From an uncultured Methylococcales bacterium (lineage in GTDB: Bacteria; Pseudomonadota; Gammaproteobacteria; Methylococcales; Methylomonadaceae), in contig CAIUVX010000050.1 in NCBI GenBank assembly GCA_903902705.1, positions 1-38,962 of the forward strand: a stretch of 38,962 bases of DNA. The letters are read 5' to 3'. The notes beneath the pieces were generated by a model that saw nothing but the letters and a program-made list of their open reading frames with translations, had not been told where the DNA came from and made no database searches. A program made the translations under genes and the position numbers. Positions 221 through 13,873 of the stretch are shown here, piece by piece. Numbering within the stretch: position 1 is the stretch's first letter; every line of letters begins with the position of its first letter.

Positions 221-781
221 TCATACGATTTCAATACGAATCGGCATATTCAATTCTTTGGCTATGCTCTCTAAAACCGATTTGGCAGTTTCTCTACCTA
301 CATGGGTTGTAATATACCAACCGCCGATGTGTTGTTGAGTTTGATAACTGCTTGTCGGTGTTTTAGAGAAAAGCGCAATATTACACACTGTTTTATTCAA
401 CCTTGCCGCACGGTCAAAACCAAACACTTTTAAGGTTTCCACAAAGGTGTTGGCAATGGTATTTTCTTCAATCATTTTACCCGCGAGCGATACGCGCAAA
501 TGACCGCCAGATGTTCTCGTACCAGCCGCCGCTTGTCTAGGCTGACGTGTTCTTGTAGTGCTTTGAGACTTTTGTTTGGTTTCAAAATGATTCAATGCAG
601 TCGCAATATCCGCATCAAGCTCCCGCAAATTACTATGTCTGGTCGATAGCATCGTAAGCTGTGAAAAATCAGCATTCAAACTGGCTTCAGCGCATTCAAT
701 TTGTAAATCATCTTGAGCGTATTTAATGGCATTAAACAATTCAGTCAGTTTGTGGGTGATGGCTTCGGGTAGAGTGTACAT
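221..781 (-). CDS. Hypothetical protein with conserved C-terminal domain
   Basis: This 186-residue protein is not assigned to a named family. Residues 1-65 look helical. Residues 70-92 are a Ser/Thr/Arg/Gln-rich linker. Residues 93-186 form a compact alpha/beta domain with LRVSLAGKMI, ENTIANTFVETL and GGWYITTHVG, ending in an IRIEIV strand. From memory, similar C-terminal domains occur at the end of many uncharacterised proteins in accessory regions, but I cannot name a Pfam entry with certainty. It is the last gene of a leftward cassette, 10 nt after the 91-residue gene, so it is probably co-transcribed with it. No signal peptide, membrane segment or catalytic motif is visible. A role in a toxin-antitoxin or defence cassette is inference from neighbours only. 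Confidence 0.7.
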   Translation of the reverse strand: MYTLPEAITHKLTELFNAIKYAQDDLQIECAEASLNADFSQLTMLSTRHSNLRELDADIATALNHFETKQKSQSTTRTRQPRQAAAGTRTSGGHLRVSLAGKMIEENTIANTFVETLKVFGFDRAARLNKTVCNIALFSKTPTSSYQTQQHIGGWYITTHVGRETAKSVLESIAKELNMPIRIEIV

Positions 782-791
782 AGTGATGTCC

Positions 792-1067
792 TTATTTACG
801 ATTAATGCGTTTGGTTAAATGACCTGTCGTAATCACCGTGCCATCGTGATTTTCAACTTTATAGATGTTGAGATATTGCGCCAATTTACTGACTAAATCC
901 CTGCCTAATTCGCGTTCCATTTTTCTGCGGCTAACGCGGGTGAAGTAGCGGATAATTGCGCCGTGTCCGTCGTAAACTTCCTCGCCGAAATTATCCAAGC
1001 AATCGAGAATGAAAGGGGGAATGCCGCGTTGTTGGCTTCTTGCGCCTGCATGATAAGTCATGTTCAT
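792..1067 (-). CDS. Small DUF4258-like (RelE/BrnT-type?) protein
   Basis: The 91-residue protein begins with a His/Arg pattern, YHAGARSQQRGIPPFILDCL, then a strand with DGHGAIIRYFT, a basic helix RRKMEREL, and a closing strand pair around NHDGTVITTGHLTKRI. The HAxxRxxxRGI opening and the late DGTVIT strand resemble DUF4258-type small proteins, which are distant relatives of RelE-like RNases. I base this on motif resemblance only. Its ATG overlaps the stop of the upstream RHH-like gene (ATGA), a tight coupling typical of antitoxin-toxin pairs. A second in-frame ATG lies two codons in. A toxin role with the upstream gene as antitoxin is plausible but unproven. Confidence 0.7.
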   Translation of the reverse strand: MNMTYHAGARSQQRGIPPFILDCLDNFGEEVYDGHGAIIRYFTRVSRRKMERELGRDLVSKLAQYLNIYKVENHDGTVITTGHLTKRINRK

Positions 1068-2119
1068 TTTACTTCTCCTGCTGATTTTGCTGATTGTTTG
1101 GTTTTTTCAGTGCGTGCTTGTTTTTCTTTTTGCATAACAGCGAGTAATTTATCTCCTTTGTTCTCACTGATATAACTATCTCTTTTAGCATCCATTCTTT
1201 CTAGTATTTCTAGTTGTTCATCAGTCATAAACGTATTAAAGCCGATACAGTTCTTTGCCTCCAAATCATCATATCCTTCTGGAAGATTTTGTAATGATAT
1301 TTTTGGGAATGGATAAGAATACATTGCCTGTTGATACTGCGGCAGTATTTCATACGCTGCTGCAATATGCTTCAGAAAGCCTCGTATTTTAGAAAAGGGA
1401 TTACTGGTTACGAGTTCTTCAATAGCATCTAATCCGTTGGCACTGGCGGTTACAGCCATATAATCATTACAATGAGAATATGTTTCAGGAGCTCCGTAAC
1501 GATTGCCTCCCCAGCTACCCCCCAATACTTGCTGATCTAAATCATGATCAACCCAATAATGATCAAGCAAGTCAGACCAGCGTTCACGTTCATCGTATTT
1601 CTCAGTCACAGGAATACCGTATCGACTATTCTTTATTCTTCCTTCTTCATCTTCTGTGAAATGTATATAATATAGGTCTCCAATACCTCGGTAATTAAGG
1701 TGGTAGCGGTCTGTAAGATCATGTTTACAAGAAAGTTCCGAAAAAAACTCACGAAAGAGAGCAGATAAAATGGTATCGGATGCAATTAACAGCAGAAAAA
1801 ACCGATTCATAAACGCATCACGCGGCACATTTTTTTCTTTGCAAACCTCATTGATTAAATCCACCGTTTCTGTGGATAACAACAAATTTAACGGCTTTAA
1901 TTTCAAATCACTCAATTGCGCGGCAATATAGCTTTTCGCCTTATCCGAATTAGGCGTTGCTATCTCCTTTCTTAAAAACTCCGCTTCCACCCGCAACGCT
2001 TTATCAAGATACGCATCGCGTTTTAAACAAGCCGCTTCCATTTTGTGCTGCATGATTGCAATGAGCGGTTCATGTACTTTGACCAAGATTTTGGTTTTGT
2101 TGATTTCTTTTGTTTCCAT
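1064..2119 (-). CDS. Large ribbon-helix-helix-like protein of unknown function
   Basis: About 351 residues from the preferred ATG at 2119, which has AGGA 8 nt upstream. An upstream in-frame ATG at 2134 has no clear ribosome binding site. The N-terminal segment TKILVKVHEPLIAIMQHKME and a later one, PLNLLLSTETVDLINEVCKE followed by NVPRDAFMNRF, both look like strand-helix-helix units of MetJ/Arc-type regulators. The protein may therefore carry two RHH-like modules before a long C-terminal region (about 150-350) rich in aromatic and acidic residues. The C-terminal part is unfamiliar. It is the first gene of the leftward cassette and overlaps the next gene by 4 nt. By position it would be the DNA-binding or antitoxin component, which is inference. 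Confidence 0.65.
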   Translation of the reverse strand: METKEINKTKILVKVHEPLIAIMQHKMEAACLKRDAYLDKALRVEAEFLRKEIATPNSDKAKSYIAAQLSDLKLKPLNLLLSTETVDLINEVCKEKNVPRDAFMNRFFLLLIASDTILSALFREFFSELSCKHDLTDRYHLNYRGIGDLYYIHFTEDEEGRIKNSRYGIPVTEKYDERERWSDLLDHYWVDHDLDQQVLGGSWGGNRYGAPETYSHCNDYMAVTASANGLDAIEELVTSNPFSKIRGFLKHIAAAYEILPQYQQAMYSYPFPKISLQNLPEGYDDLEAKNCIGFNTFMTDEQLEILERMDAKRDSYISENKGDKLLAVMQKEKQARTEKTKQSAKSAGEVK

Positions 2120-2344
2120 GATGTGAATCCTCATATCTTTATTGAAGTTGGCAATAGAATATCATAGATAGAAATTTAGACAATACTTTTTATTAAAAAT
2201 AATAATCTAAATTTCTTTCTCACAAAATCTATGCTTTCGTAAGCAATGAAATGACGGCACATCACAGTCCTAGCCTCTGCCAGTAATGCAGGTTACAATT
2301 GCCACAGTTACAAAAACACAGCGCAAAAAACCGCAGGCTAAACC

Positions 2345-2572
2345 ATGATTACCTTGCCCGAACATTTAGAACAGCCGTTTTTGCACATTGCAGAAATGGA
2401 ACATAAGCCTGTTAATACACTCATTGAGCAAGCATTAACGGATTTTTTAGAAGATTATTATGATGTCCAACTTGCCACAGCCGCCATTAAACGTTTAGAA
2501 AGCGGCGAATCTGAACTTATATCACTAGAAGATGCTGAAAGGATGCTACATGAAATGGACTGTGAAGATTGA
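2345..2572 (+). CDS. RelB/CopG-like antitoxin
   Basis: The 75-residue acidic protein opens with a strand (MITLPEHLEQPFLHIAEM) followed by NTLIEQALTDFLEDYYDVQ, the ribbon-helix-helix plus linker helix seen in RelB/DinJ and CopG-type antitoxins. The tail, SLEDAERMLHEMDCED, is typical of the toxin-wrapping C terminus, including the SLED/E motif common in RelB-like proteins. Its last codons overlap the start of a RelE-like reading frame in +1, the normal gene arrangement for relBE. The toxin frame is cut short (separate entry), so this antitoxin appears orphaned. Such antitoxins normally repress their own promoter, which here would lie in 2135-2344. Confidence 0.8.
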   Translation: MITLPEHLEQPFLHIAEMEHKPVNTLIEQALTDFLEDYYDVQLATAAIKRLESGESELISLEDAERMLHEMDCED

Positions 2573-2630
2573 GCAAGCTTTGTTTGCGCGTGGCAAGCAA
2601 AACTTGCACTCCTTGATAGCTTTAATTTAA
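2550..2630 (+). pseudogene. Truncated RelE-family toxin remnant
   Basis: An ATG at 2550, overlapping the antitoxin's end, opens a frame that reads MKWTVKIEQALFARGKQ and stops at 2628-2630 after 26 codons. The opening (W-T-V-x-I-E followed by an A-containing helix) is the usual N terminus of RelE/ParE-type mRNA interferases, which are about 85-95 residues long. Nothing resembling the rest of the fold follows, because the convergent HupE-like gene ends at 2622 and overlaps the remnant. I infer deletion of the toxin body. An alternative is a chance short frame, but the start overlap and motif argue against it. Confidence 0.65.
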
Positions 2631-3674
2631 CAACGTCCGTTCTATTAACCAATAAGCTCCCGCTAAACTGGCTAACACAGAACAAACAGGGGTTAGATAC
2701 GGTTCTATGGTTGGTTTTTTATGTAGCCACCAAATAATCGGTAATACGATGCTGGCAACGGTAATCTGCCCGATTTCCACACCTAGGTTAAAAGAAAACA
2801 GCGGCACTAAAATTCCAGTTTCTAAGGAAGAAATGCCCATTTCGCGTAGCACTGCGGCAAAACCAAAACCATGTATTAATCCGAAAAAAAATGTCAGCCA
2901 TTGCCGTCCTTTGGGATGATCGCCACGAATGATATTTTCTACACCGACATAAATAATGGTTGCGGCAATTAATGGCTCAACGATGGTGCTGGGTATATCG
3001 ACGACATTCATTGCCGCCAATGCCAGAGTAATGGAATGGGCAACGGTGAAAAAAGTGATGATTTTGAGCGCGGGTAAAAAACTGCGCGTGACTACCAGCA
3101 ACGAAAACAAAAATAACAGGTGATCGTAGCCTGTCAAAATATGTTCTATGCCTAACAGCAAAAAGTCGGTAAAGGTGGATGACTTGCCAACCAGAGAATT
3201 CATCACGCTGTCTTCTTGAGACAGCATTTTTTCGCTGAGATTTTTACCTGCTTCATTTTTTACCGTGACATACTGTTTATGATCTTTGGGCAGTTTGCTT
3301 AAAAAATCAGCGCGTAACTCGGTGGGTATTTGCGCATAACGCATAGAAATATGGGCGTTATTTTGTTGATCAAAACTGACTTCACCCGCCGCGATAGGTT
3401 GAATCACTTGCCCCTCAACTATCAGTTGTACGCCTTGTTGTACCCATAGTGCAATTTTGGGTTTGGCAGCGTCCTGTTCAGCGGCGGTGACTTCTGCATC
3501 TTGATCGCTGTCCATCGGTACAAAGGCTTCTATGTCTTGCAAAGAAAAAGTGATGCTAACATCAACGCCCTGTTCTTTGACGATGACATCGACAGAACTC
3601 AATCCAGGATCATGCGCTAAACTGAATGGTGCGTAGGTAAGTAGAAAAATAACTGCGATTAGTCTACCGAACAT
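2622..3674 (-). CDS. HupE/UreJ-like membrane protein with periplasmic N-terminal domain
   Basis: The 350-residue protein has a signal peptide (cleavage near A20, before HDPGL), a periplasmic domain of about 145 residues, and then a polytopic HupE/UreJ_2-type domain (about 168-345). In the membrane part, histidines and an aspartate sit in conserved places: H178 and D184-H185 in IEHILTGYDHLLF, H213 in VAHSITLA, and H268 in LIHGFGFA. HupE/UreJ relatives are thought to move or sense metal ions, mainly nickel. The family member with this N-terminal extension is uncharacterised. Its ATG overlaps the previous stop (TAATG), so it is translationally coupled to the lipoprotein, and CopC begins the operon. 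A copper-related role is suggested by context only. Confidence 0.85.
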   Translation of the reverse strand: MFGRLIAVIFLLTYAPFSLAHDPGLSSVDVIVKEQGVDVSITFSLQDIEAFVPMDSDQDAEVTAAEQDAAKPKIALWVQQGVQLIVEGQVIQPIAAGEVSFDQQNNAHISMRYAQIPTELRADFLSKLPKDHKQYVTVKNEAGKNLSEKMLSQEDSVMNSLVGKSSTFTDFLLLGIEHILTGYDHLLFLFSLLVVTRSFLPALKIITFFTVAHSITLALAAMNVVDIPSTIVEPLIAATIIYVGVENIIRGDHPKGRQWLTFFFGLIHGFGFAAVLREMGISSLETGILVPLFSFNLGVEIGQITVASIVLPIIWWLHKKPTIEPYLTPVCSVLASLAGAYWLIERTLLN

Positions 3675-4440: not shown

Positions 4441-4824
4441 TTAAGGGGCTTTAATAGTGAATTGATATTTACCTGTGACGATATGGGTGTCAATAGATAC
4501 CACACGATAACGGACAGTATAGGTATCGGGAGGTAATAAGGGCAAGGTGGTATAAAGATGGGCTGAATCAAAGGTTTCTTGCACCAAATCTTTATTGTCA
4601 ACACGCTTACCTTTGCTATCAATGACAGCGAGGGCTTTGTATTCCGTGCCGACTTTATCATCGAACCAGACATCAACTTGTTTAGGTGATTCAGTTAAAA
4701 CGGCATCTTGCTCAGGTGAAGAACGCACCATTTTAGCGTGTGCAAACGATAACGAGGGCAACATCGCCAGTGCAACAAACAGGGCTAAGCCCCAAATTTT
4801 TTTATTATGTTGGTAATGAGTCAT
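4441..4824 (-). CDS. copC: Periplasmic copper-binding protein CopC
   Basis: The 127-residue protein has a signal peptide ending SLSFA, giving a mature N terminus at His29 in HAKMVRSSPEQ, the hallmark start of CopC. The C-terminal strand VVSIDTHIVTGKYQF supplies D112 and H114. The mature N-terminal His plus D-x-H is the known Cu(II) site of CopC proteins. Met/His-rich Cu(I) loops are not apparent, so it looks like the Cu(II)-only type. No fused or adjacent CopD is present, and the downstream partners are a lipoprotein and a HupE-like protein instead. It heads a leftward operon whose promoter should lie in 4825-4950. Confidence 0.93.
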   Translation of the reverse strand: MTHYQHNKKIWGLALFVALAMLPSLSFAHAKMVRSSPEQDAVLTESPKQVDVWFDDKVGTEYKALAVIDSKGKRVDNKDLVQETFDSAHLYTTLPLLPPDTYTVRYRVVSIDTHIVTGKYQFTIKAP

Positions 4825-4951: not shown

Positions 4952-5050
4952 CGTCATTTCGGCAGGGATTGCCGAAATCCAGAAGCCACGGATGGCATAC
5001 ACTCAAACACATCCTTGTGACTGGATTCCAGCATCCCTGCTGGAATGACG
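4952..5050. repeat. 99-bp imperfect inverted-repeat element (REP/MITE-like)
   Basis: The left arm (4952-4982) and right arm (5021-5050) are reverse complements over about 30 nt with a few mismatches. The ends read CGTCATT and AATGACG, and each arm is itself a small palindrome around GCAGGGAT. The intervening 38 nt is unique. This is the form of a dispersed non-coding palindromic element. It occupies most of the gene-free stretch 4825-5141 between copC and the FGE operon end. Confidence 0.8.
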
Positions 5051-5141: not shown

Positions 5142-6059
5142 TCATTGGTAATCGTCCTGCCCGCCCGCATCGTCACCACTGACGGGCTTCGCTACCGCTT
5201 GCCTGTCCGTGGCAACGGTGCGGGCTTGCTTAACTGCCTCTGTTTGACCTAGGGCAAAACGGAAGCCGATGAGGCCGTTGCCATTAACAGGCGCGGAGCT
5301 GCTACGGTTAGCAGAACGTGCGTACCTCGCGCCGTTGCCCCAAGAACCGCCGCGCAACACCCGCGACGAGTCTTCAATAGCCCCTGTGGGATTAGTGACT
5401 GGTTCACTCGAATAGCCACCATACCAATCATTGCACCACTCCCAAACATTGCCGTGCATTTCATACAAGCCCCAATCGTTTGGTGGTAGGGATTTAACAG
5501 GCACGGTTTTTTCACGATACAAGCCTTTTTCAGCGTTGTTATAAGGGTAATTTCCATCATAATTCACTTGTTCAGGGGTGATGTTGTCGCCAAAGGAAAA
5601 TGGTGTTGTTGTGCCAGCTCTGCACGCATATTCCCATTCTGCCTCAGTCGGTAAACGGGCGTTTAAGTCGGGTATCAACTGATTAAGTTTACTTAAAAAA
5701 TCTTGCACATTATCCCAACTGACTTGTTCAACAGGATTATTTAAGCCTTCTTTAAAACTAGCTGGATTTTCACCCATGACTGCCATCCATAAGGCTTGGG
5801 TACAAGCGGACTCCGCTAACCAGTAACCCTGAGTGAGTGTGACTTTATGTTGTGTTTCTCTGTCGAATCTTTCTGGTTCATCAGACGGCGAACCCATTAA
5901 GAAACTCCCCGCCTCTATCCAGCGAAAAATTTGTTTGACCTCCTTAACAGTTAATTCCATCCATAAGCCAAACTCATCTTCACCAAAGGCAGTTGCCCAC
6001 GAGGCAGGGAAAGGATGGGGAAAGTTAATATTGGGTTTTAGATTAGAGGGCATGGGCAT
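5142..6059 (-). CDS. Stand-alone FGE-sulfatase/CLec-fold protein, probable DGR target
   Basis: A 305-residue cytoplasmic protein whose residues about 45-270 form an FGE-sulfatase (SUMF1-like, C-type-lectin fold) domain. Visible motifs are GSFLMGSP, PVEQVSWDNVQDFL, RLPTEAEWEYACRAG, WGLYEMHGNVWEWC, RVLRGGSW and IGFRFA. The catalytic cysteine pair that true formylglycine-generating enzymes carry after GGSW is absent, so I read it as a binding domain rather than an oxidase. It is a tandem paralogue of the C-terminal domain of the preceding 878-residue protein, starting 44 nt downstream of it. The C-terminal variable segment (5268-5339) has the pattern of a DGR variable region. A hydrophilic tail of about 25 residues follows the homology. 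The start ATG at 6059 has only a weak ribosome site; a second ATG lies two codons in. Confidence 0.9.
   Translation of the reverse strand: MPMPSNLKPNINFPHPFPASWATAFGEDEFGLWMELTVKEVKQIFRWIEAGSFLMGSPSDEPERFDRETQHKVTLTQGYWLAESACTQALWMAVMGENPASFKEGLNNPVEQVSWDNVQDFLSKLNQLIPDLNARLPTEAEWEYACRAGTTTPFSFGDNITPEQVNYDGNYPYNNAEKGLYREKTVPVKSLPPNDWGLYEMHGNVWEWCNDWYGGYSSEPVTNPTGAIEDSSRVLRGGSWGNGARYARSANRSSSAPVNGNGLIGFRFALGQTEAVKQARTVATDRQAVAKPVSGDDAGGQDDYQ
5268..5339 (-). other. Candidate DGR variable region VR-B
   Basis: These 24 codons lie between TGG (of GGSW) and GGC (of GFRFA). Against VR-A they differ at 22 of 72 nt, 21 of them at codon positions 1 or 2, and 14 codons change amino acid. Altered codons end in C or T except one. 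The downstream coding flank is identical for 34 nt, and the upstream 27 nt differs by one silent base. This fits adenine-directed mutagenic retrohoming from a template with AAC/AAT codons. The template itself is not in the window. A small hairpin with a CCAC loop lies beyond it at 5171-5184, of uncertain relevance. Confidence 0.8.
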
Positions 6060-6103
6060 ACTCGTTAGGTCGCTACCTATTTGAATTTTATCTTATCAAA
6101 GAT

Positions 6104-8740
6104 TCAGCTAAAAAAATTCTTGCTGTCCGTGGCGACGGTGCGGGCTTGCTTTTCTGCCTCTGTTTGACCTAGGGCAAAACGGAAGCCGAGGTCGTGGAAG
6201 CGAATAACAGGCGCGTCGTAGTTACGGCTAGCAGAACGCGAGTACCTCGCGAGGCTGTACCAAGAACCGCCACGCAACACCCGCGACGTGCCTTCAGTTG
6301 CGCCTTTAGGATTCGTGACAGATTCATTCGGATAGTCACCAAACCAATCATTACACCATTCCAAAACATTACCGTGCATTTCGTACAAGCCCCAATCATT
6401 CGGTGGCAAGGATTTTACCGCAACGGTTTTGCCGCGATCCAGTCCTTTTTCAGCATTGTTATAAGGACGACTACCATCGTAATTAACTTGTTCAGGCGTG
6501 ATATTGTCACCAAAAGAAAACGGCGTTGTTTTTTTTGCTCCTGCTCTACAGGCGTATTCCCATTCGGCTTCGCTGGGTAAATAGGCGTTTAAATCGGGTA
6601 TCAATTGATTAAGTTTACTTAAAAAGTCTTGTACATCATCCCAACTGACTTGCTCAACGGGGTTGTTTTTATCCTCTTTAAAACGGGCTGGATTATCGCC
6701 CATCACCGCTTGCCATAAGGCTTGCGTGCAAGCTGTATCCGCTAACCAGTAGCCTTGTGTCAGTGTCACTTGATGCTGTATTTCATCGTCATAGCGTTCT
6801 GGTTCATCAGGCGGCGAACCCATTAAGAAACTACCAGACTCTATCCAGCGAAAACGCTGGCTGACTTTGTTAATGGTTAAATCGGCATAGATACCATACT
6901 TATCTTTACCAAATGGCGGTTTCCATGCCCAATCACTGTATTCAGCGACACGCCAAGGCAGGATGTGGTGTTTGCCTCGCCAGTTGACACTAACAAATAA
7001 ACCTTGACTATCCCGCCATATACGACTTGCCCAATCGGGTTTTTTAATGGCTTTTAGTTCCAGTTGTTCGGTTTCTGTTTCAATGCTGACGGTTTCAGCT
7101 TCATTTAAACTGAAAACTTGTCCATCTTGAATAATGTTTTGTTTACCATCGGCGTTGCGTTGTACGGGTGTGTGTTTTGTTGACAGCGTGGCAATGCTTA
7201 ATGGCTGCGCGTTGCTTTGCACACAAAACTGCCCTTGTCCTTGTTGGACAATGTACCACTGCTGTGTTTTTGTATTAGGATTATTTTCTTCAAGTTCATA
7301 CAGATCATAGCCTTGATTCAGTAGCTGTTGGCGTTGTGTTTCGTTATGACTGAGGGCGGCGATACGGTGTAATAACGGGCTTATCCTTGTGTCTAAAATG
7401 CAGTTTGGCGTTAAGGCAATCACGGTTTGCGCTTGGGCTTGTAACGCGCTGTTAGTTTGTTCGGTGTTTAACCGTGTGACCAGATTTTTATAATAGCGGT
7501 TGATGTTGTCATCCAATGGCGTATTCCGCTGCATGGCGTGTTTATTTAAGCCTTCTAAACATTTTAAACCTTGAAAAGCGGTGGCATGGTGTTCATTAAC
7601 AATTTGCCAAAAATCTTTGGTATCGTGTGGATAATATTGACGATAGTTTTCAGCGGTTTCTTTAGGAAAATAAATGCCTAAGCCGTTATCAACCACATCA
7701 GGATGTCGCCAGATAAAATGTTCGAGTTCACTGCCGCCCCACTGTAGTTCTTTGCGTAAGCGGCGCAATAAAGCGGTATCAATCAAGGGTAATACGGATA
7801 ACAGCGCGAAAATTTCGCGTCTTTTGGTTTCCGACAGTTCGGGCAGTGTAAAGCCTTTTTGATACGGATGACGGCGTACAGCTTGGCTATCGTTTAAGGG
7901 ATTGGGTTTAAGGTGTTGACACAGGTTTACATCATTTGGCGTGTTTCTGCTGGGGCTGAGTGTCAACATCGGTGCGCTGCGTGCTTGTAGGCGTTTGCTT
8001 AAGTATCGCCAATGCTTTGCGTTTAAATCACTTAAAATTAACACTGCAACATCATCGGCGGGTTCTTGCCATCTGTGCCATGAATCGTTAGACCTTGCAG
8101 GATAAGGCAAACAATACGCCTGTTCGTGAGTCATACTGTCTTCATCAAAACGTATCGCGCTAACGGCTTCTTTTCCTAAGCGTTTTTTCAGTTCATCGAC
8201 GATAAATTCAAAATCAACCCAATAGGGTTCTAAATCTAATCGGGCATCGACAATGATTTGTACGCGCTGTGACCAAACTTGTCTGGGCAAATAGGGCAAA
8301 CGCTTTAAGGCTTTACCTTTTGCCAGTTGTGAACTTAAACGGGTTAAGTCTAGGTTGTTACCTTCGCGCTTCTGCCCTAAGCCGTTATGCAGTAACGGAA
8401 TTAATCGTGCCATTGTGAGCAAAGGCTCGGCGGCTTTAAAACGATAACTGCCTTCTGTGGTTTCTGGCGGTGCGCCTGAAAAGGTATCGGGTTCGGGAAT
8501 AATGTCTGGTTTGGTTTTTGATTGACTGATTACGATGAATAAGGCGGGCGGGCGTTTTGGAGTTTGTTCTGCGTTGTCGTCTGCTGTTGTTGAAACAGTC
8601 GGTTCAGTGGTTGAACTAAAGCTCTGTTCAGCAATATAGTGTATTGGTTCATGTTCATAACCAAATAACTGCGCGATTTTTTCCAAAGTTTCATCTGATT
8701 CACCCGCAGCGTGTATCAGTGCTAAACGTCCCCATGCCAT
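6104..8740 (-). CDS. vWA-like protein fused to C-terminal FGE/CLec domain, probable DGR target
   Basis: This 878-residue cytoplasmic protein is the operon's largest. Residues 1-110 hold a short conserved opening and a Ser/Thr/Pro-rich linker. Residues about 158-265 look like a vWA fold (strand VQIIVDARLDLE, later VAVLILSDLN), but the metal-site DxSxS motif is degenerate (D165-A-R-L-D169). Residues about 290-460 are mainly helical. Residues about 628-878 are an FGE-sulfatase domain (GSFLMGSP, PSEAEWEYACRAG, GLYEMHGNV, RVLRGGSW, LGFRFA) lacking catalytic cysteines after GGSW. The overall form resembles SAV_2336-type proteins encoded beside MoxR ATPases. It starts 1 nt after the MoxR stop. The final domain carries variable region VR-A (6188-6259). 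I infer a sensor whose lectin-like end binds a changing ligand and whose vWA part couples to the ATPase. Confidence 0.9.
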   Translation of the reverse strand: MAWGRLALIHAAGESDETLEKIAQLFGYEHEPIHYIAEQSFSSTTEPTVSTTADDNAEQTPKRPPALFIVISQSKTKPDIIPEPDTFSGAPPETTEGSYRFKAAEPLLTMARLIPLLHNGLGQKREGNNLDLTRLSSQLAKGKALKRLPYLPRQVWSQRVQIIVDARLDLEPYWVDFEFIVDELKKRLGKEAVSAIRFDEDSMTHEQAYCLPYPARSNDSWHRWQEPADDVAVLILSDLNAKHWRYLSKRLQARSAPMLTLSPSRNTPNDVNLCQHLKPNPLNDSQAVRRHPYQKGFTLPELSETKRREIFALLSVLPLIDTALLRRLRKELQWGGSELEHFIWRHPDVVDNGLGIYFPKETAENYRQYYPHDTKDFWQIVNEHHATAFQGLKCLEGLNKHAMQRNTPLDDNINRYYKNLVTRLNTEQTNSALQAQAQTVIALTPNCILDTRISPLLHRIAALSHNETQRQQLLNQGYDLYELEENNPNTKTQQWYIVQQGQGQFCVQSNAQPLSIATLSTKHTPVQRNADGKQNIIQDGQVFSLNEAETVSIETETEQLELKAIKKPDWASRIWRDSQGLFVSVNWRGKHHILPWRVAEYSDWAWKPPFGKDKYGIYADLTINKVSQRFRWIESGSFLMGSPPDEPERYDDEIQHQVTLTQGYWLADTACTQALWQAVMGDNPARFKEDKNNPVEQVSWDDVQDFLSKLNQLIPDLNAYLPSEAEWEYACRAGAKKTTPFSFGDNITPEQVNYDGSRPYNNAEKGLDRGKTVAVKSLPPNDWGLYEMHGNVLEWCNDWFGDYPNESVTNPKGATEGTSRVLRGGSWYSLARYSRSASRNYDAPVIRFHDLGFRFALGQTEAEKQARTVATDSKNFFS
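6188..6259 (-). other. Candidate DGR variable region VR-A
   Basis: This is the equivalent 24-codon segment in the 878-residue protein. Residues at variable sites are Y/G, S/N, L/G, S/A, S/N, N/S, Y/S, D/S, I/N, R/G, F/N, H/G, D/L and L/I (VR-A/VR-B). The codons between them are identical at the DNA level. Every difference can be explained by an A in one template: AAC at codons 1-3, 11, 13-15 and 20-23, ACA at 7, AAT at 19 and ATC at 24. Outside this block the paralogues differ mainly at third positions. Confidence 0.8.
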
Positions 8741-8741
8741 A

Positions 8742-9656
8742 TTAATCAGCCAATTCTTTTTTCAACGCATAATCTTTGATTTTGGCTAATCGTTGTTGTT
8801 GATCATCTAGTTCTAATTTGCCTAACGCACTGAGTAAATCAATATATTCGGCTAATCCAGGTGGATAACGCTTGTATAGTTTTCTATCATCCAATAATAA
8901 CTTAGCCGCGTCTACATAAACCGATTCTGCGATTTTGTCGCCAAAATGTAATTCACCACGTTGTTTTAACCACAGTTCGTCTTCTTCCATTTTCAAAGTA
9001 TGCACAAAACAACGGCGCACAAAAGCGGTCGGCAATTCGCGTTCTTCATTGGTGGTAATAATCACCAATACTTTTTCAGGATTTGCTTTAATGGTTTGGT
9101 TAATGTATGGCACGGTAAACTGATAATTGCCCAAAGTTTCTAATAAACCATTGGGTAAATCAGGTTCAGCTTTATCAATTTCATCAATCAATAACACTAC
9201 GCCATTTTCATGAGCGTTATTATTTTCTGGTTCAGCTCTGAGTTTTGTATGGCATTGGTCATATTGTGCTTTAGCCGTTTCCCACTGATATGCCCACCAA
9301 AAAGCACTGGGTGATAAAAATTTTTCGGCTTTTAATTCTTTTAAATCACACTCCGCTTTGCTCATGGCTTGCGCTTCACCCAAACGCCCAATCGCATCAA
9401 AATTCCAATGTAAATCCGATAATTCAGTATTGCCGCGTATCACTTCACTGACAAACGCCCAACCCAATTGATGAGCGATAGCTTTTGCCATTTGTGATTT
9501 ACCTGTTCCTGATTTGCCCCGCACTAATAACGGTCTTCCTGCCGCGTAGGCTGCCCACAGTGCGTAACAATCGTCTTCATTGAAAATGTGAAAAAGGTTT
9601 TTATCTGGCTTGGAAATCGTGAGATTTTCGGGTTTGAAGTGTTCAAGTTTGGGCAT
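8742..9656 (-). CDS. MoxR-type AAA+ ATPase
   Basis: The 304-residue protein is a single AAA+ module. Walker A is GKSGTGKS at residues 47-54, Walker B VVLLIDEID at 153-161, sensor 1 around TTN 201-203, and the arginine finger candidates R214/R215 follow LPTAFV. An insertion between Walker A and B (about 95-150) is longer than in minimal MoxR proteins. The C-terminal lid helices are basic and acidic without extra domains. MoxR ATPases usually remodel or activate a vWA partner, and here the vWA-like protein is encoded immediately downstream with 1 nt between them. It is probably the NTP-dependent switch of the operon. It begins 6 nt after the protease stop. Confidence 0.93.
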   Translation of the reverse strand: MPKLEHFKPENLTISKPDKNLFHIFNEDDCYALWAAYAAGRPLLVRGKSGTGKSQMAKAIAHQLGWAFVSEVIRGNTELSDLHWNFDAIGRLGEAQAMSKAECDLKELKAEKFLSPSAFWWAYQWETAKAQYDQCHTKLRAEPENNNAHENGVVLLIDEIDKAEPDLPNGLLETLGNYQFTVPYINQTIKANPEKVLVIITTNEERELPTAFVRRCFVHTLKMEEDELWLKQRGELHFGDKIAESVYVDAAKLLLDDRKLYKRYPPGLAEYIDLLSALGKLELDDQQQRLAKIKDYALKKELAD

Positions 9657-9662
9657 GGGGGA

Positions 9663-11219
9663 TTATTCCTTTCGATGATATTCAAGTGCTTGCAAAAAAT
9701 CCTTAACTTTTGCAAGTACAGAGATTTGCTTTACAGAACAAGGGTTTTCTTCAGTGAGTTGTTCTTTTGGAGCGCAGCAAATAAAGCGCAAACAGCCTGC
9801 TAGTTCTGCTTGAGCCTTTAAAAACCAGTCTTTTGATTCCAGAATTTCAAGATAGGCTGGTGTTACTAAATAATAGATTAATTTCCCTTCTTGATTGTCA
9901 CGTTTTGACTCTGCTGCTGCGACTATTCTCTCTATTAAGTCATCCACTGGATGATTAGGTGGGGGAAGAAAATTCCACAAATCCTTATAAATTGGCGTTA
10001 ATAATATCTGGTCAGTCGATTCATCATCGGCATCATAGATAATAAGCGGCAAGCGAATATTTTTGTCATCCGTTTTAAATGGCTTGGGATTACCCAATTT
10101 AGACTTATCCGATTCATCAGGTTTATCGGATTTCTCTAGCATATATTGAGCGGGTCTAAAAAAGCTGCGCGAAATAATAACTTCAATATAATCGGGTTCT
10201 TTCAGATTAAGTTTACCTGTTGCCTGCTTCATTTGTTGTTCATGATGAAACCACCAGACAGGATCAACACTGTTAGTCAGTAACCAGCCAGCTATTTCTT
10301 CTACCTCGTCTATCCTATTCGGCGGGTATTTTTTCAAAATTCTTGTTATCACTGAAATAGAGTCAAGAACTGACATGGATTTACCCGTCTTATCGACTAT
10401 CAGAGATTCTTCAATAAGTTCATCTATGCTCTTATCTTTCTCCCCTTTCAAAAATTCTCTTAAAATCTTATCGGTAAAATTCTCTTGCAGAAGCCTTGAA
10501 ATGTTGGCTTTAATTTTATCGTGTAGCTTTCGCGTTTGTTTTTTTATCGCTTCTTCGTCAATGGGTTGCGATTTTGCTTTGAAGTCTGGATTAGTTGCTA
10601 ACAAGCTAGGGATAGATACTGCAAGAAAAAGACCTTCAATCGTTTTATATTCATGGGTGATGACTGCAACCAGTTTGTCATCAATGAATACAGGAGAACC
10701 AGAAAGCCCTGCCCAATCTTTATTTTCCTCTTTAACCGCTGCGCTTTTAATTTTTAGACCAGTATGCAGCTCGATAACACCATCTGCCCTTATTCCCGCT
10801 ACAACTCCCACATTAGGAATACTTTCACGGGTTTTGCCTACCTCATTTGCTTTTGCCTGATTAGACACTGTTCCTATTTTTCCTGCTTTTGGAAAACCCC
10901 GTGTTGACCATGACTTATTAATTTTTGGCACTCTATCTGCTAACGTCACTTGGGGTGCTTTAAACGGGGTTGTTTCTGAATAATGAATGATTGCTAAATC
11001 AAGCTGTTCGTCTTGAAACACAATGGTAAATGGTGTTTCAAGATATTCTTGTTTATGCCAAACCAGTGTAAATTGAGGAATAGCGTTACGCTTAGTAAAT
11101 GACACAACATGATTAGCCGTTAAAACAACGCCATTGCCAATTGGGTATCCCGTGCCTATAGTCCAATCACCGTCACTGTCTTTTACCAAAATTTGTACTA
11201 ACCATTTATCCTCTAACAT
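9663..11219 (-). CDS. Cytoplasmic trypsin-like serine protease with unknown C-terminal module
   Basis: The 518-residue protein begins directly with a chymotrypsin-fold protease. The triad is visible as H37 in TANHVV, D74 in QLDLAII and S173 in GLSGSP. There is no signal peptide, so it should act inside the cell. Residues about 210-310 are helical (KLHDKIKANISRLLQENF, ITRILKKYPP). Residues about 335-518 form another alpha/beta region with YIEVIISRSFF, LIIYDADDES and GKLIYYLVTP. I do not recognise this part; it could be a divergent VMAP-like or effector-associated adaptor of vWA-MoxR conflict systems. It lies 16 nt after the Trypco2-like gene, whose family is named for co-occurrence with such proteases. 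A role as the death or processing effector is inference. Confidence 0.88.
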   Translation of the reverse strand: MLEDKWLVQILVKDSDGDWTIGTGYPIGNGVVLTANHVVSFTKRNAIPQFTLVWHKQEYLETPFTIVFQDEQLDLAIIHYSETTPFKAPQVTLADRVPKINKSWSTRGFPKAGKIGTVSNQAKANEVGKTRESIPNVGVVAGIRADGVIELHTGLKIKSAAVKEENKDWAGLSGSPVFIDDKLVAVITHEYKTIEGLFLAVSIPSLLATNPDFKAKSQPIDEEAIKKQTRKLHDKIKANISRLLQENFTDKILREFLKGEKDKSIDELIEESLIVDKTGKSMSVLDSISVITRILKKYPPNRIDEVEEIAGWLLTNSVDPVWWFHHEQQMKQATGKLNLKEPDYIEVIISRSFFRPAQYMLEKSDKPDESDKSKLGNPKPFKTDDKNIRLPLIIYDADDESTDQILLTPIYKDLWNFLPPPNHPVDDLIERIVAAAESKRDNQEGKLIYYLVTPAYLEILESKDWFLKAQAELAGCLRFICCAPKEQLTEENPCSVKQISVLAKVKDFLQALEYHRKE

Positions 11220-11235: not shown

Positions 11236-11568
11236 TTAGGCTTTGCTACTGATTGTTAAGGCATTAGGTGTCCATGTGCCATCTGAATTTTGTGTATAAC
11301 TCACTGCCCCTAAACTCAATTTAATTTTCTGCTTAATCGCTTTTTTGTATTTCGCACCTGCTTCAGCACTTGCATCAACGACACCGAGTCTAATTTTAAA
11401 CCCACCTTTACCATCGGCTTCTTTTTCTACGACTGTTTCCAATTCGACTTCTACATTATTCACATTAAAGCGAATTTCTTTATCTGTACTTTCTCGTTGC
11501 GCTTTTACTAACTCTTCACGCAATGCTTTGATTACATCCGCTAGTTCGAGTGCTGTATTATCTGTCAT
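11236..11568 (-). CDS. Trypsin-co-occurring domain (Trypco2-like) protein
   Basis: A 110-residue protein with ALELADVIKALREELVKAQ at the N terminus, a central strand set IRFNVNNVEVELETVVEKE, a glycine-rich turn, then FKIRLGVVDASAEAGAKYK and a final strand QKIKLSLGAVSY. This helix-plus-beta arrangement matches what I know of the Trypco2 family, found next to trypsin-like proteases in conflict operons. The adjacent gene is such a protease, which supports the call. GGAG lies 8 nt upstream of the ATG. It is the first gene of the leftward five-gene operon, so the promoter should be within 11569-11709. Function in the family is unknown; a recognition or inhibitor partner for the protease is a guess. 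Confidence 0.8.
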   Translation of the reverse strand: MTDNTALELADVIKALREELVKAQRESTDKEIRFNVNNVEVELETVVEKEADGKGGFKIRLGVVDASAEAGAKYKKAIKQKIKLSLGAVSYTQNSDGTWTPNALTISSKA

Positions 11569-11709: not shown

Positions 11710-12897
11710 CTATTCGTTGAGCATTTTAACAACCCATTTATTAGGTTGTTTAGGATGTTTTTCTGTCCACATTGCTAAAAATCCTGACTGCGTTGCCATA
11801 AGACGCGGATGGGTTGCCATGATGCCTTTGGTGGTTAAGCGTTTTGGTGCTGACCAAGTGACACCGCCATTTTGCGACTGTGCGGAAAAAATACTCGCGC
11901 CGTCTGGCTCGCGTTCATCCCAAATCGCCATCACCTGCTGATTATTGACCGCAATGTCGCTATGACTGGCTAAACCGCCTAGCGATTGTGGCGCAGTCCA
12001 TGTTTTACCGTTGTCCCCTGAATGCAATGTGTATAAACCCGCTTTGCCCTCAACACCTGTCCATACCGTGCTATATAAAGTATTGTCATCGCTAATGGCT
12101 AAGCCACCTCCAATATGCGGACAACCTTCAAATTGCCAGTTAAACAGTCCCACTGTACTGGTGCGTTGCCACGTCTCGCCATTATTGGCTGATTGCATCA
12201 ATGCCATATCACGCGGTTTCATATCCCGATACAGGATATTAATTTCGCCTGATGGTGATAGAGCTAAGGTATTCCAACAGCAAGAGCAAGTGGAATCATC
12301 CAATTTTTGGCTGGCTTGCCAATGCTCACCGCCATCAAGCGAACGGGCATAACGTAAACTTTGATAGCCATTTTCCTCAGGATCAGCTAACCAAACTGTA
12401 TGAAAAATGCCTTTTTTATCGGCAATCACATCGATATGTGCTTGATCGCCATTATTATCAACGGCAGGATTTGTGCCTTGTTGCCACGTTTTGCCAGCAT
12501 CATGAGAATAATAACTGACCATCGCACCCATACTGGGTAGTTCACCTTTCACTTGCCAGATTGCAAGCAGATTGTCACCTGCGACGGCAATTTGAACATC
12601 ATTACCACGCACGGCAAGTGGCTGGGTATTGGTGGCAACATCAACCGCACTACCCCAATGTTCACCACCATCGTCAGAAGATAAATAGCGAATGACAACA
12701 CGGTTATTTTTTTCGCCCACTTTACCTGCAATCAAGGTGTGGATAATATTATGGTCAACGGTCACATCGAAGCTGGTCACTTCCTGTAAACCCAAAGAAG
12801 AGGATGTTGGCTGTGCAACTTGCGGAGTAACGCACGCCGTTAAAGACACTAAAACCACGCCAACAAGCAGTGTGTGTAAATAAGAAAATCGATACAT
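11710..12897 (-). CDS. Asp-box (BNR/sialidase-like) beta-propeller lipoprotein
   Basis: This 395-residue protein has a lipoprotein signal with lipobox LTAC (Cys22). It then carries at least six Asp-box repeats of the S-x-D-x-G-x-x-W type, for example SSDDGGEHW, SHDAGKTW, SLDGGEHW, SANNGETW, SGDNGKTW and SQNGGVTW, spread through the chain as in a six-bladed propeller. A cysteine cluster, CSCCW, near the middle is unusual for sialidases and could bind metal. The sialidase arginine triad cannot be confirmed, so enzyme activity should not be assumed. It probably sits on the periplasmic face of a membrane. If the neighbouring FGE module was inserted, this gene was once next to the copper operon, which would suit a metal-linked role. 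Confidence 0.85.
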   Translation of the reverse strand: MYRFSYLHTLLVGVVLVSLTACVTPQVAQPTSSSLGLQEVTSFDVTVDHNIIHTLIAGKVGEKNNRVVIRYLSSDDGGEHWGSAVDVATNTQPLAVRGNDVQIAVAGDNLLAIWQVKGELPSMGAMVSYYSHDAGKTWQQGTNPAVDNNGDQAHIDVIADKKGIFHTVWLADPEENGYQSLRYARSLDGGEHWQASQKLDDSTCSCCWNTLALSPSGEINILYRDMKPRDMALMQSANNGETWQRTSTVGLFNWQFEGCPHIGGGLAISDDNTLYSTVWTGVEGKAGLYTLHSGDNGKTWTAPQSLGGLASHSDIAVNNQQVMAIWDEREPDGASIFSAQSQNGGVTWSAPKRLTTKGIMATHPRLMATQSGFLAMWTEKHPKQPNKWVVKMLNE

Positions 12898-13099: not shown

Positions 13100-13873
13100 A
13101 TGAATATAAAATTTATTTTTACTTTCATTGCCATAATAATACCTTGGCAATCAGTATACGCGGTAGAGGTTCAACATAAACCGTTTGCAGGAATCGGCTT
13201 TGTCAAAATAGAGGCGGGCTGTTTTTTGATGGGGCGAGATACAGAAGTTAAAGAAAGTAGCGAAGTTGAATTGCCGCAGCATCGTGTTTGCATTGAAAAA
13301 CCTTTTTACCTGAGTGAAACCGAAATTACTCAGAAACAATGGGAAACTGTGATGGGCAGTAATCCCAGCAAGTACAAGGGACAGTATAAACCTGTAGAAA
13401 AAGTTAATTGGAATGATACCCAAGATTTTATCAAGCGTTTAAACGATCAAGAAGGCGGTAGCTTTTTTCGCCTCCCTAGCGAGGCGGAATGGGAATATGC
13501 CGCTAGAGCAGGCAGTACCACGCTGTATTCCTTTGGTGATAAACCCAAGGATTTAGTCGATTATGCGTGGTTTGGTAATGAGGGTTATCACGGTACTAGC
13601 AAAGAAGTTGGCACTAAAAAACCTAATCAATGGGGATTATATGATATGCACGGTAATGTTTGGGAATGGGTGCAGGATTGGTACGATCCTAACTATTACC
13701 ATAACAGCCCAGAAAAAGACCCCAAAGGCCCAGAGTCTGGTCAATATCGCGTCTATCGTGGGGGAAGTTGGGTGGGTAAAGCCGTTAATTTACGCTCAGC
13801 TCTGCGCTATAGCGGTTTACCTGTGAGCCGTACTAGCGACATTGGTTTTCGTCTGTTAAGAGAGGTCGAATAA
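13100..13873 (+). CDS. Secreted FGE-sulfatase/CLec-domain protein
   Basis: The 257-residue protein has a signal peptide (cleavage near VYA, about residue 21) and then a complete FGE-sulfatase domain: FVKIEAGCFLMGRD, TEITQKQWETVMGSNPS, PVEKVNWNDTQDFI, RLPSEAEWEYAARAG, GLYDMHGNVWEWVQDW, RVYRGGSW and IGFRLL. The cysteines of catalytic FGE after GGSW are missing, so copper-dependent formylglycine formation is unlikely. It is closer in layout to generic SUMF1/PvdO-like proteins. GAGGAG lies 8 nt upstream of the ATG. It is a third FGE paralogue in the window but is exported and not in the operon. Its C-terminal segment (YSGLPVSRTSD) occupies DGR-type variable positions, with many NNY codons, but there is no close nucleotide match to the other two copies. 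Confidence 0.9.
   Translation: MNIKFIFTFIAIIIPWQSVYAVEVQHKPFAGIGFVKIEAGCFLMGRDTEVKESSEVELPQHRVCIEKPFYLSETEITQKQWETVMGSNPSKYKGQYKPVEKVNWNDTQDFIKRLNDQEGGSFFRLPSEAEWEYAARAGSTTLYSFGDKPKDLVDYAWFGNEGYHGTSKEVGTKKPNQWGLYDMHGNVWEWVQDWYDPNYYHNSPEKDPKGPESGQYRVYRGGSWVGKAVNLRSALRYSGLPVSRTSDIGFRLLREVE

What the first reader, a model, noticed from the sequence alone, without database searches (positions are those of the whole stretch)
5268..6259. Two FGE/CLec domains carry DGR-type variable regions
The 72-nt segments 5268-5339 and 6188-6259 differ at 22 positions, 21 at codon positions 1-2, and 14 of 24 codons change residue. All 22 differences fit adenines in one template (mostly AAC codons). The 34-nt downstream flank is identical, while the paralogues otherwise differ mainly by silent third positions. 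This is the signature of adenine-specific mutagenic retrohoming by a diversity-generating retroelement, here hitting two adjacent targets.
Basis: partly seen in the sequence, partly recalled or inferred. Interest (0 to 1): 0.96.

Follow-up and report, generated by a model that had tools for sequence, protein, structure and literature searches.

The report
Orphaned hypervariable sensors without their writer
Two neighbouring bacterial sensor genes carry the fingerprint of a natural gene-diversifying machine, but that machine is missing from this genome, while a sister species still has it between the same two genes.

Summary
The two 72-nt segments are variable repeats (VRs) of a diversity-generating retroelement (DGR), in the C-terminal FGE/C-type-lectin domains of two adjacent minus-strand genes. 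A congener (G005, a Lake Pavin Methylococcales MAG) has the same operon with an HRDC accessory, a DGR reverse transcriptase (RT) and a template repeat (TR) between the two genes. Of the 22 VR1/VR2 differences, 21 fall on adenines of that TR.

The present tense is not supported. In this 99.8%-complete, 210-contig genome no RT and no TR were found, by searches that did find the congener's. The two genes are joined by 44 bp. A second genus has the cassette at the same place, and three other paired loci keep truncated HRDC relics with RT and TR gone. This is therefore most likely a loss, and similar losses recur in the family.

I read the pair as frozen sensors of a MoxR/trypsin/Trypco2 conflict operon, written by a former DGR and still carrying the VR-type target mark. 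DGR loss with leftover VRs is in print (Treponema denticola), and so is this operon type (DGR clade 5A): a new, clean member of a known kind. The main open rival is an RT on unbinned DNA.

The parts
5142..6059 (-). Short FGE-only target gene (FGE1, 305 aa); counterpart of the short CLec-only target of clade 5A DGR loci
   Evidence: PF03781 E 1.3e-45; matches solved FGE structures and Treponema denticola variable protein 1, 2y3c, E 2.5e-22; 86% aa identity to the G005 ortholog
5268..5339 (-). VR1, 24 hypervariable codons
   Evidence: In the 96-nt VR frame 17 of 31 template adenines changed against 2 of 65 other bases
5245..5267 (-). 3' end of VR homology (IMH-like) with the VR-type mark CCTAGG; the TR has CCTAGC
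6104..8740 (-). Long target gene: about 600-aa N-terminal extension without a Pfam domain plus C-terminal FGE domain (878 aa)
   Evidence: PF03781 at residues 632-856 only; 92% aa identity to the G005 ortholog
6188..6259 (-). VR2, 24 hypervariable codons
   Evidence: In the 96-nt VR frame 19 of 31 template adenines changed against 2 of 65 other bases
6165..6187 (-). 3' end of VR2 homology with the VR-type mark
6060..6103 (-). Junction (44 bp) where G005 and G171 carry HRDC-RT-TR; keeps the old 3' end of the long gene and the sequence that follows the TR in G005 and G171; TCAAA microhomology at the two breakpoints
   Evidence: deletion by microhomology is inferred
8742..9656 (-). MoxR-like AAA ATPase
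   Evidence: PF07728 E 4.8e-12
9663..11219 (-). Trypsin-like peptidase (putative effector)
   Evidence: PF13365 E 2e-6
11236..11568 (-). Trypco2 adapter
   Evidence: PF19631 E 2.5e-21
4441..4824 (-). CopC-domain gene, one flank of the inserted operon
   Evidence: lies directly beside the 11710-12897 gene in 4 of 4 congeners examined (G001, G003, G006, G007)
11710..12897 (-). BNR-repeat gene, other flank of the inserted operon

Best explanation
The two segments are variable repeats written by mutagenic retrohoming from an HRDC-type DGR that once sat between the two genes. An operon (Trypco2, trypsin-like peptidase, MoxR ATPase, long FGE target, HRDC, RT, TR, short FGE target) entered the CopC/BNR site in the ancestor of this species and G005. 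The RT copied the TR with random bases at adenines, and the cDNA replaced the VRs. In this lineage HRDC-RT-TR was then deleted from just after the stop of the long gene to just before the start of the short one. This left a five-gene operon whose two sensors are intact but frozen at their last written specificity. The target mark at the 3' end of each VR is intact, so a cognate RT/TR arriving in trans could in principle write them again. Shown: the VR signature, the congener's cassette, its absence here, conserved synteny, relics elsewhere. Inferred: the order of events, the sensor role, the frozen state.
For: 21 of 22 VR differences on template adenines. The G005 RT's best PDB match is 8ub7 'Reverse transcriptase', E 7e-47 (that 8ub7 is the Bordetella phage DGR RT is recalled), with LPIGSLTSQ and YMDD motifs conserved in 6 relatives. 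Cassette order long FGE - RT - TR - short FGE in 7 loci of 6 genomes; in these, 14 VRs differ from their own TR at 2 of 972 non-adenine sites in all, against 8-19 of 23-31 adenine sites each. Other genus G171 has Trypco2-trypsin-MoxR-FGE-HRDC-RT-TR-FGE. HRDC relics without RT or TR between paired FGE genes in G177 C913, G011 C273 and G011 C208. Genes still constrained outside the VRs: dN/dS 0.23 and 0.19.
Against: This is a 210-contig assembly, so a missing RT is not proof of absence. Deletion is inferred from outgroups, not seen as an event. The G000 VRs are hardly decayed: 0-2 non-adenine differences from the G005 TR per 65 sites. An excess over intact loci is weak: 4 of 260 private changes against 2 of 972, p = 0.02; p = 0.07 if the VR2 base shared with the G171 TR is dropped. 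The loss must be recent, or writing in trans has gone on. Genome-wide HRDC absence was tested only with DNA.
Confidence: 0.82

Rival explanations
1. The VRs are still being written in trans by an RT and TR on DNA missing from this assembly (unbinned contig, plasmid, gap, or a minority strain that keeps the cassette).
For: 210 contigs. VRs elsewhere in the genome also match the TR: C82 0 of 65 and C130 2 of 65 non-adenine differences. G005 has two VRs on other contigs. Trans writing and loci disrupted in the reference but intact in reads are reported for Thiohalocapsa PB-PSB1 (PMC10907252, section 8). Both C50 VRs carry C at TR position 24 where the G005 TR has T, so their template was not identical to the G005 TR.
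Against: Completeness 99.79%; 0 RVT_1 candidates; no seventh, TR-like copy; the home locus is assembled through without a break.
Confidence: 0.14
2. The cassette was never in this lineage: G005 gained HRDC-RT-TR between two pre-existing FGE genes after the split, and the VRs here were written in trans by a DGR since lost.
For: Paired FGE genes without a cassette occur in other genomes. The operon is mosaic between the two sister species.
Against: The same cassette order occurs in 7 loci of 6 genomes. Three loci show truncated HRDC where RT and TR are gone. The sequence after the TR is shared by G005 and G171, and its end remains at the junction here.
Confidence: 0.03
3. Ordinary positive selection or gene conversion among paralogues, with no retroelement involved.
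For: dN/dS above 1 inside the VRs (10.8 and 2.6).
Against: 21 of 22 differences on template adenines (p = 1e-9); an actual TR and RT in the congener.
Confidence: 0.01

Closest known systems
DGR clade 5A loci, e.g. DGR 8 of Thiohalocapsa PB-PSB1 (PMC10907252; sections 8 and 13 read, other passages)
   Same: MoxR-like ATPase immediately upstream of a target with a domain-less N-terminal extension; [quoted passage not shown] Trypco and trypsin neighbours
   Different: Those loci are described around their RT; here RT, TR and accessory gene are absent. The word HRDC does not occur in that paper's text. No clade assignment by tree was made here
Treponema denticola DGR and its leftover target genes (PMC4891356; passages)
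   Same: HRDC accessory overlapping the RT gene; strains without RT and TR that keep target genes whose VRs differ from other strains' TRs mostly at adenines
   Different: Different phylum and targets (many predicted lipoproteins). Here the deletion junction is resolved inside an intact conflict operon, against a sister species
MoxR-vWA / VMAP ternary conflict systems (PMC7159879; passages)
   Same: MoxR ATPase, trypsin-like peptidase, Trypco2 neighbour, DGR-linked FGE domain
   Different: No vWA or VMAP domain was found in the operon's proteins by Pfam
Nanoarchaeal DGR fragments without RT (PMC4372165; passages)
   Same: VRs with adenine bias at sites without an RT gene, which the authors call possible fossils or remotely diversified sites
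   Different: Archaea; targets without known relatives
Bordetella phage BPP-1 DGR (PMC3240598; passages on IMH and hairpin)
   Same: A 3' IMH boundary and a target-side structure
   Different: The BPP-1 hairpin lies downstream of the VR; here the VR-only feature is a short palindrome-like CCTAGG at the end of the VR homology, and its role is untested

Membership tests
Diversity-generating retroelement (complete, in this genome) | DGR-type reverse transcriptase | tested here: not met
   0 RVT_1 matches with E up to 10 and 0 candidates; 0 tblastn matches to the G005 RT
Diversity-generating retroelement (complete, in this genome) | Template repeat matching the VR at non-adenine sites | tested here: not met
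   6 VR-like copies, each in an FGE frame; 6 marks, all VR-type and none TR-type
DGR target gene (former or trans) | VR differs from the TR almost only at template adenines | tested here: met
   17 of 31 and 19 of 31 adenines against 2 of 65 and 2 of 65 other sites, with the congener's TR
DGR target gene (former or trans) | VR at the C-terminus of a C-type-lectin/FGE fold | tested here: met
   PF03781 and PDB sequence matches including 2y3c; fold not modelled
DGR cassette in congener G005 | RT of the DGR lineage | tested here: met
   8ub7 far ahead of group II intron RTs (E 7e-47 against 1e-14 for the next); motifs; no tree was built
DGR cassette in congener G005 | Accessory protein (Avd, HRDC or MSL) | tested here: met
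   HRDC PF00570 E 4.9e-18
VMAP ternary conflict system | MoxR ATPase plus vWA protein plus VMAP protein | tested here: not met
   MoxR present; no vWA or VMAP Pfam match in the operon. It may work like a clade 5A variant
Active DGR | VR polymorphism within a population confined to template adenines | not testable with these tools
   no reads available

The most novel reading that the evidence does not exclude
In this methanotroph family the DGR writer is disposable. Paired sensors of MoxR/trypsin conflict operons are written, then HRDC-RT-TR is repeatedly deleted while both sensors are kept under purifying selection, fixing a useful binding specificity ('write, then freeze'). The retained VR-type end mark leaves them open to rewriting by a DGR acting in trans.
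Probability: 0.3. Interest if true: 0.68.

Novelty: new member of a known kind. Interest (0 to 1): 0.45.

Why it matters
DGRs are usually recognised through their RT, so sensor pairs like this one would be missed. Here a sister-species pair gives a before/after view of one locus, with the template that wrote the variable codons still readable in the sister. In 237 family genomes, 12 of the 21 that carry the end mark have no RT match at E of 3e-24 or better (some of the 12 are incomplete or closed genomes whose single mark was not confirmed as a VR). If such losses are selected, bacteria would have a counterpart of fixing a chosen receptor after hypermutation, and that can be tested by comparing strains. 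If they are mere decay, the sensor genes should now be drifting.

Tried and rejected
Active DGR in this genome: rejected for this assembly. RT matches in congeners G001, G007 and G003 and a second one in G005 were considered as the writer. The two proteins of G001 and G007 and the G003 one at L067 match retron-type models in PADLOC. The G005 protein at L068 was only read, not scanned, and looks like L067. The second G003 protein (L065) was read and not classified. Avd (PF05635) search of this genome: 0. A viral-contig search with the G005 RT gave one locus, 34% identical, not followed. The genome-contig search gave the G005 record and distant FGE proteins, and could not show this genome's own name. 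Retention of VRs in RT-less near-closed genomes G202, G187, G206 and G090 was examined as support and largely dropped. In G206 no VR motif was found. In G090 the two copies differ 6/5/7 by codon position. In G202 and G187 the second copies are identical in protein and differ from the first copies at all positions. A decay test on non-adenine sites was inconclusive (one search used 984 as denominator, recounted as 972).

Structure prediction was tried five times and never queued, so no fold was modelled. Literature: searches. 'Diversity-generating retroelement' with 'Methylococcales' gave 0 papers; '8UB7' with the same phrase gave 0.
Full report
What was checked. The window is the whole of contig C50 of an assembly (G000) of 3.97 Mb in 210 contigs, 99.79% complete and 0.31% contaminated. 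Elsewhere the aligned genes differ at 56 first or second and 85 third positions (Fisher p = 3.8e-7).

The template exists in a sister species. In the genus (8 genomes, this one included) only G005 has a DGR-like RT. Its contig C39 carries the same locus in the order long FGE gene, HRDC gene, RT gene, TR, short FGE gene. The TR reads as RGGSWNNNARNTRSANRNNNTPDNRNNNIGFR; its asparagine codons are the variable sites. Of the 22 VR1/VR2 differences 21 are on TR adenines. In the 96-nt frame VR1 differs from the TR at 17 of 31 adenines and 2 of 65 other bases, VR2 at 19 of 31 and 2 of 65. The RT's best solved relative is 8ub7 at E 7e-47, against 1e-14 for the next (that 8ub7 is the Bordetella phage enzyme is recalled). 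The accessory is HRDC (PF00570), as reported for T. denticola (PMC4891356, passages).

The writer is absent here. RVT_1 gives 0 matches with E up to 10 and 0 candidates. The G005 RT gives 0 tblastn matches. A DNA search with VR1 finds six copies, all in FGE frames, and no TR-like seventh, although the same query finds the G005 TR. At the home locus the two FGE genes are 44 bp apart. The junction keeps the old end of the long gene and the last bases of the stretch that follows the TR in both G005 and G171, with TCAAA at both G005 breakpoints. The long gene's tail is shorter than in G005.

Loss rather than gain. G171, of another genus, has Trypco2, trypsin, MoxR, long FGE, HRDC, RT (79% identical to that of G005), TR, short FGE in the same order. 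Seven loci in six genomes have RT and TR between the two targets. In these the 14 VRs have 2 non-adenine differences from their own TR in 972 sites. Three other paired loci keep a truncated HRDC directly after the long gene, followed by repeat-like sequence, with RT and TR gone: G177 C913 (116 aa), G011 C273 (about 44 recognisable residues) and G011 C208 (28 residues). Paired targets 0.92-1.1 kb apart without a detectable relic are seen in G031, G167, G168, G171 and G174 as well as here; of these, G031, G167, G168, G171 and G174 have a DGR-like RT elsewhere in the genome and may be served in trans, whereas G000 has none. In four of four congeners examined (G001, G003, G006, G007; G002 and G004 were not examined) CopC and the BNR gene are neighbours with no operon between, so the operon came in before G000 and G005 split.

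Other VRs of this genome. C82 (0 of 65 non-adenine differences from the G005 TR) and C130 (2 of 65) are recent targets of the same kind of template; C104 (15 of 89, 3-nt insertion) and C91 (6 of 89, 6-nt insertion) look old. The C130 gene has counterparts in G005 and in G001, which has no DGR RT. The two C50 VRs carry C at TR position 24, as does the G171 TR, while C82 and C130 carry T as does the G005 TR. So at least two template versions have acted on this genome, and neither is in it now.

A mark at the VR end. In the loci read, 33 of 39 rows called VR have CC-N(1-3)-GG just after GFR, and 0 of 8 TRs do. The six misses are four rows of L180, one of L188 and the unrelated FGE protein at 13100-13873. 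A pattern built on it (G or C at the telling base, one mismatch) matches 21 of 237 family genomes, 62 matches, with 0 in the reversed control; TR-type matches occur in 6 genomes (G005, G042, G140, G141, G171, G174) and not in G000. It fits only one kind of VR end, so counts are lower bounds. This resembles the IMH/IMH* distinction of BPP-1 (partly recalled; IMH and hairpin passages in PMC3240598). All six G000 copies carry the VR-type mark, two of them with one mismatch to the pattern.

How it most likely works. By analogy with clade 5A DGR loci (PMC10907252, section 13) the FGE domains are the sensing ends, MoxR relays, and the trypsin-like peptidase with Trypco2 acts. That chain is inference. 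What the sequence adds is that this lineage has stopped writing, or writes from DNA we cannot see. Outside the VRs the two genes are under purifying selection relative to G005 (dN/dS 0.23 and 0.19), but most of that time may precede the loss. A test for drift inside the VRs is inconclusive (4 of 260 against 2 of 972, p = 0.02; 3 of 260, p = 0.07 without one shared base).

Novelty. Target genes left behind by DGR loss are reported in T. denticola (PMC4891356, passages) and suggested in Nanoarchaeota (PMC4372165, passages). Disrupted and trans-served loci are known in Thiohalocapsa (PMC10907252). A search for DGR with Methylococcales found no paper. The case is a new and clean member of a known kind. 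The recurrent loss, with relics, from paired conflict-system sensors is its most interesting side.

Noticed in passing
window 9663-11219 and 8742-9656 against L070 10239-11852 and 9090-10097: Effector exchange between sister species: the trypsin-like protein is only 34-38% identical to that of G005 (dS about 1.8) while flanking genes are 95-98% identical; it is slightly closer to that of G171 (40%). MoxR is patchy (dS 0.5), with divergent stretches at residues 1-30, 120-150 and 240-270.
   Followed up: partly
L070 8469-9093: In G005 a TumE-like toxin gene and an HVO_A0114/HTH gene stand between MoxR and the long FGE gene; this window has neither.
   Followed up: no
G000 C104:20460-21217 (L007): An old, decayed VR copy sits in an FGE domain at the end of a 728-aa protein with weak caspase-like matches (Peptidase_C13 and Raptor_N).
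   Followed up: no
G000 C130 (L071 4690-4900) and G005 C53 (L075): A further target gene shared by G000, G005 and G001; in G000 the conserved RVLRGGSW reads RVLCGGSW, and in G005 the gene appears split over two reading frames.
   Followed up: partly
L247 (G042 C344) 781-3146: A TR and a VR are present, but where the RT is expected there is a plasmid-type initiator gene (Rep3_N and Rep3_C); the RT search found only a 16-residue match. It could be a chimeric contig or a replaced RT.
   Followed up: partly
window 4964-5050 and dispersed: A repeat of up to about 146 bp, also found upstream of HRDC in G005, makes up most of the 57 matches of the cassette search in this genome.
   Followed up: no
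L248 4783-5112, L250 about 5543-5740, L188 about 4885-4700: Palindromic repeat-like sequences sit at the points where the HRDC relics break off, which hints that small repeats take part in cassette loss.
   Followed up: no
L180 (G031 C62): A second kind of DGR array with VR end GCCCGAGTTC and a TR-like copy ending GCCCGAGCTC, so the VR/TR end difference uses another base there.
   Followed up: no
window 13100-13873: A third FGE gene in the window, conserved in the four congeners examined at 80-84% identity, without the DGR end mark; an ordinary FGE-family protein.
   Followed up: partly
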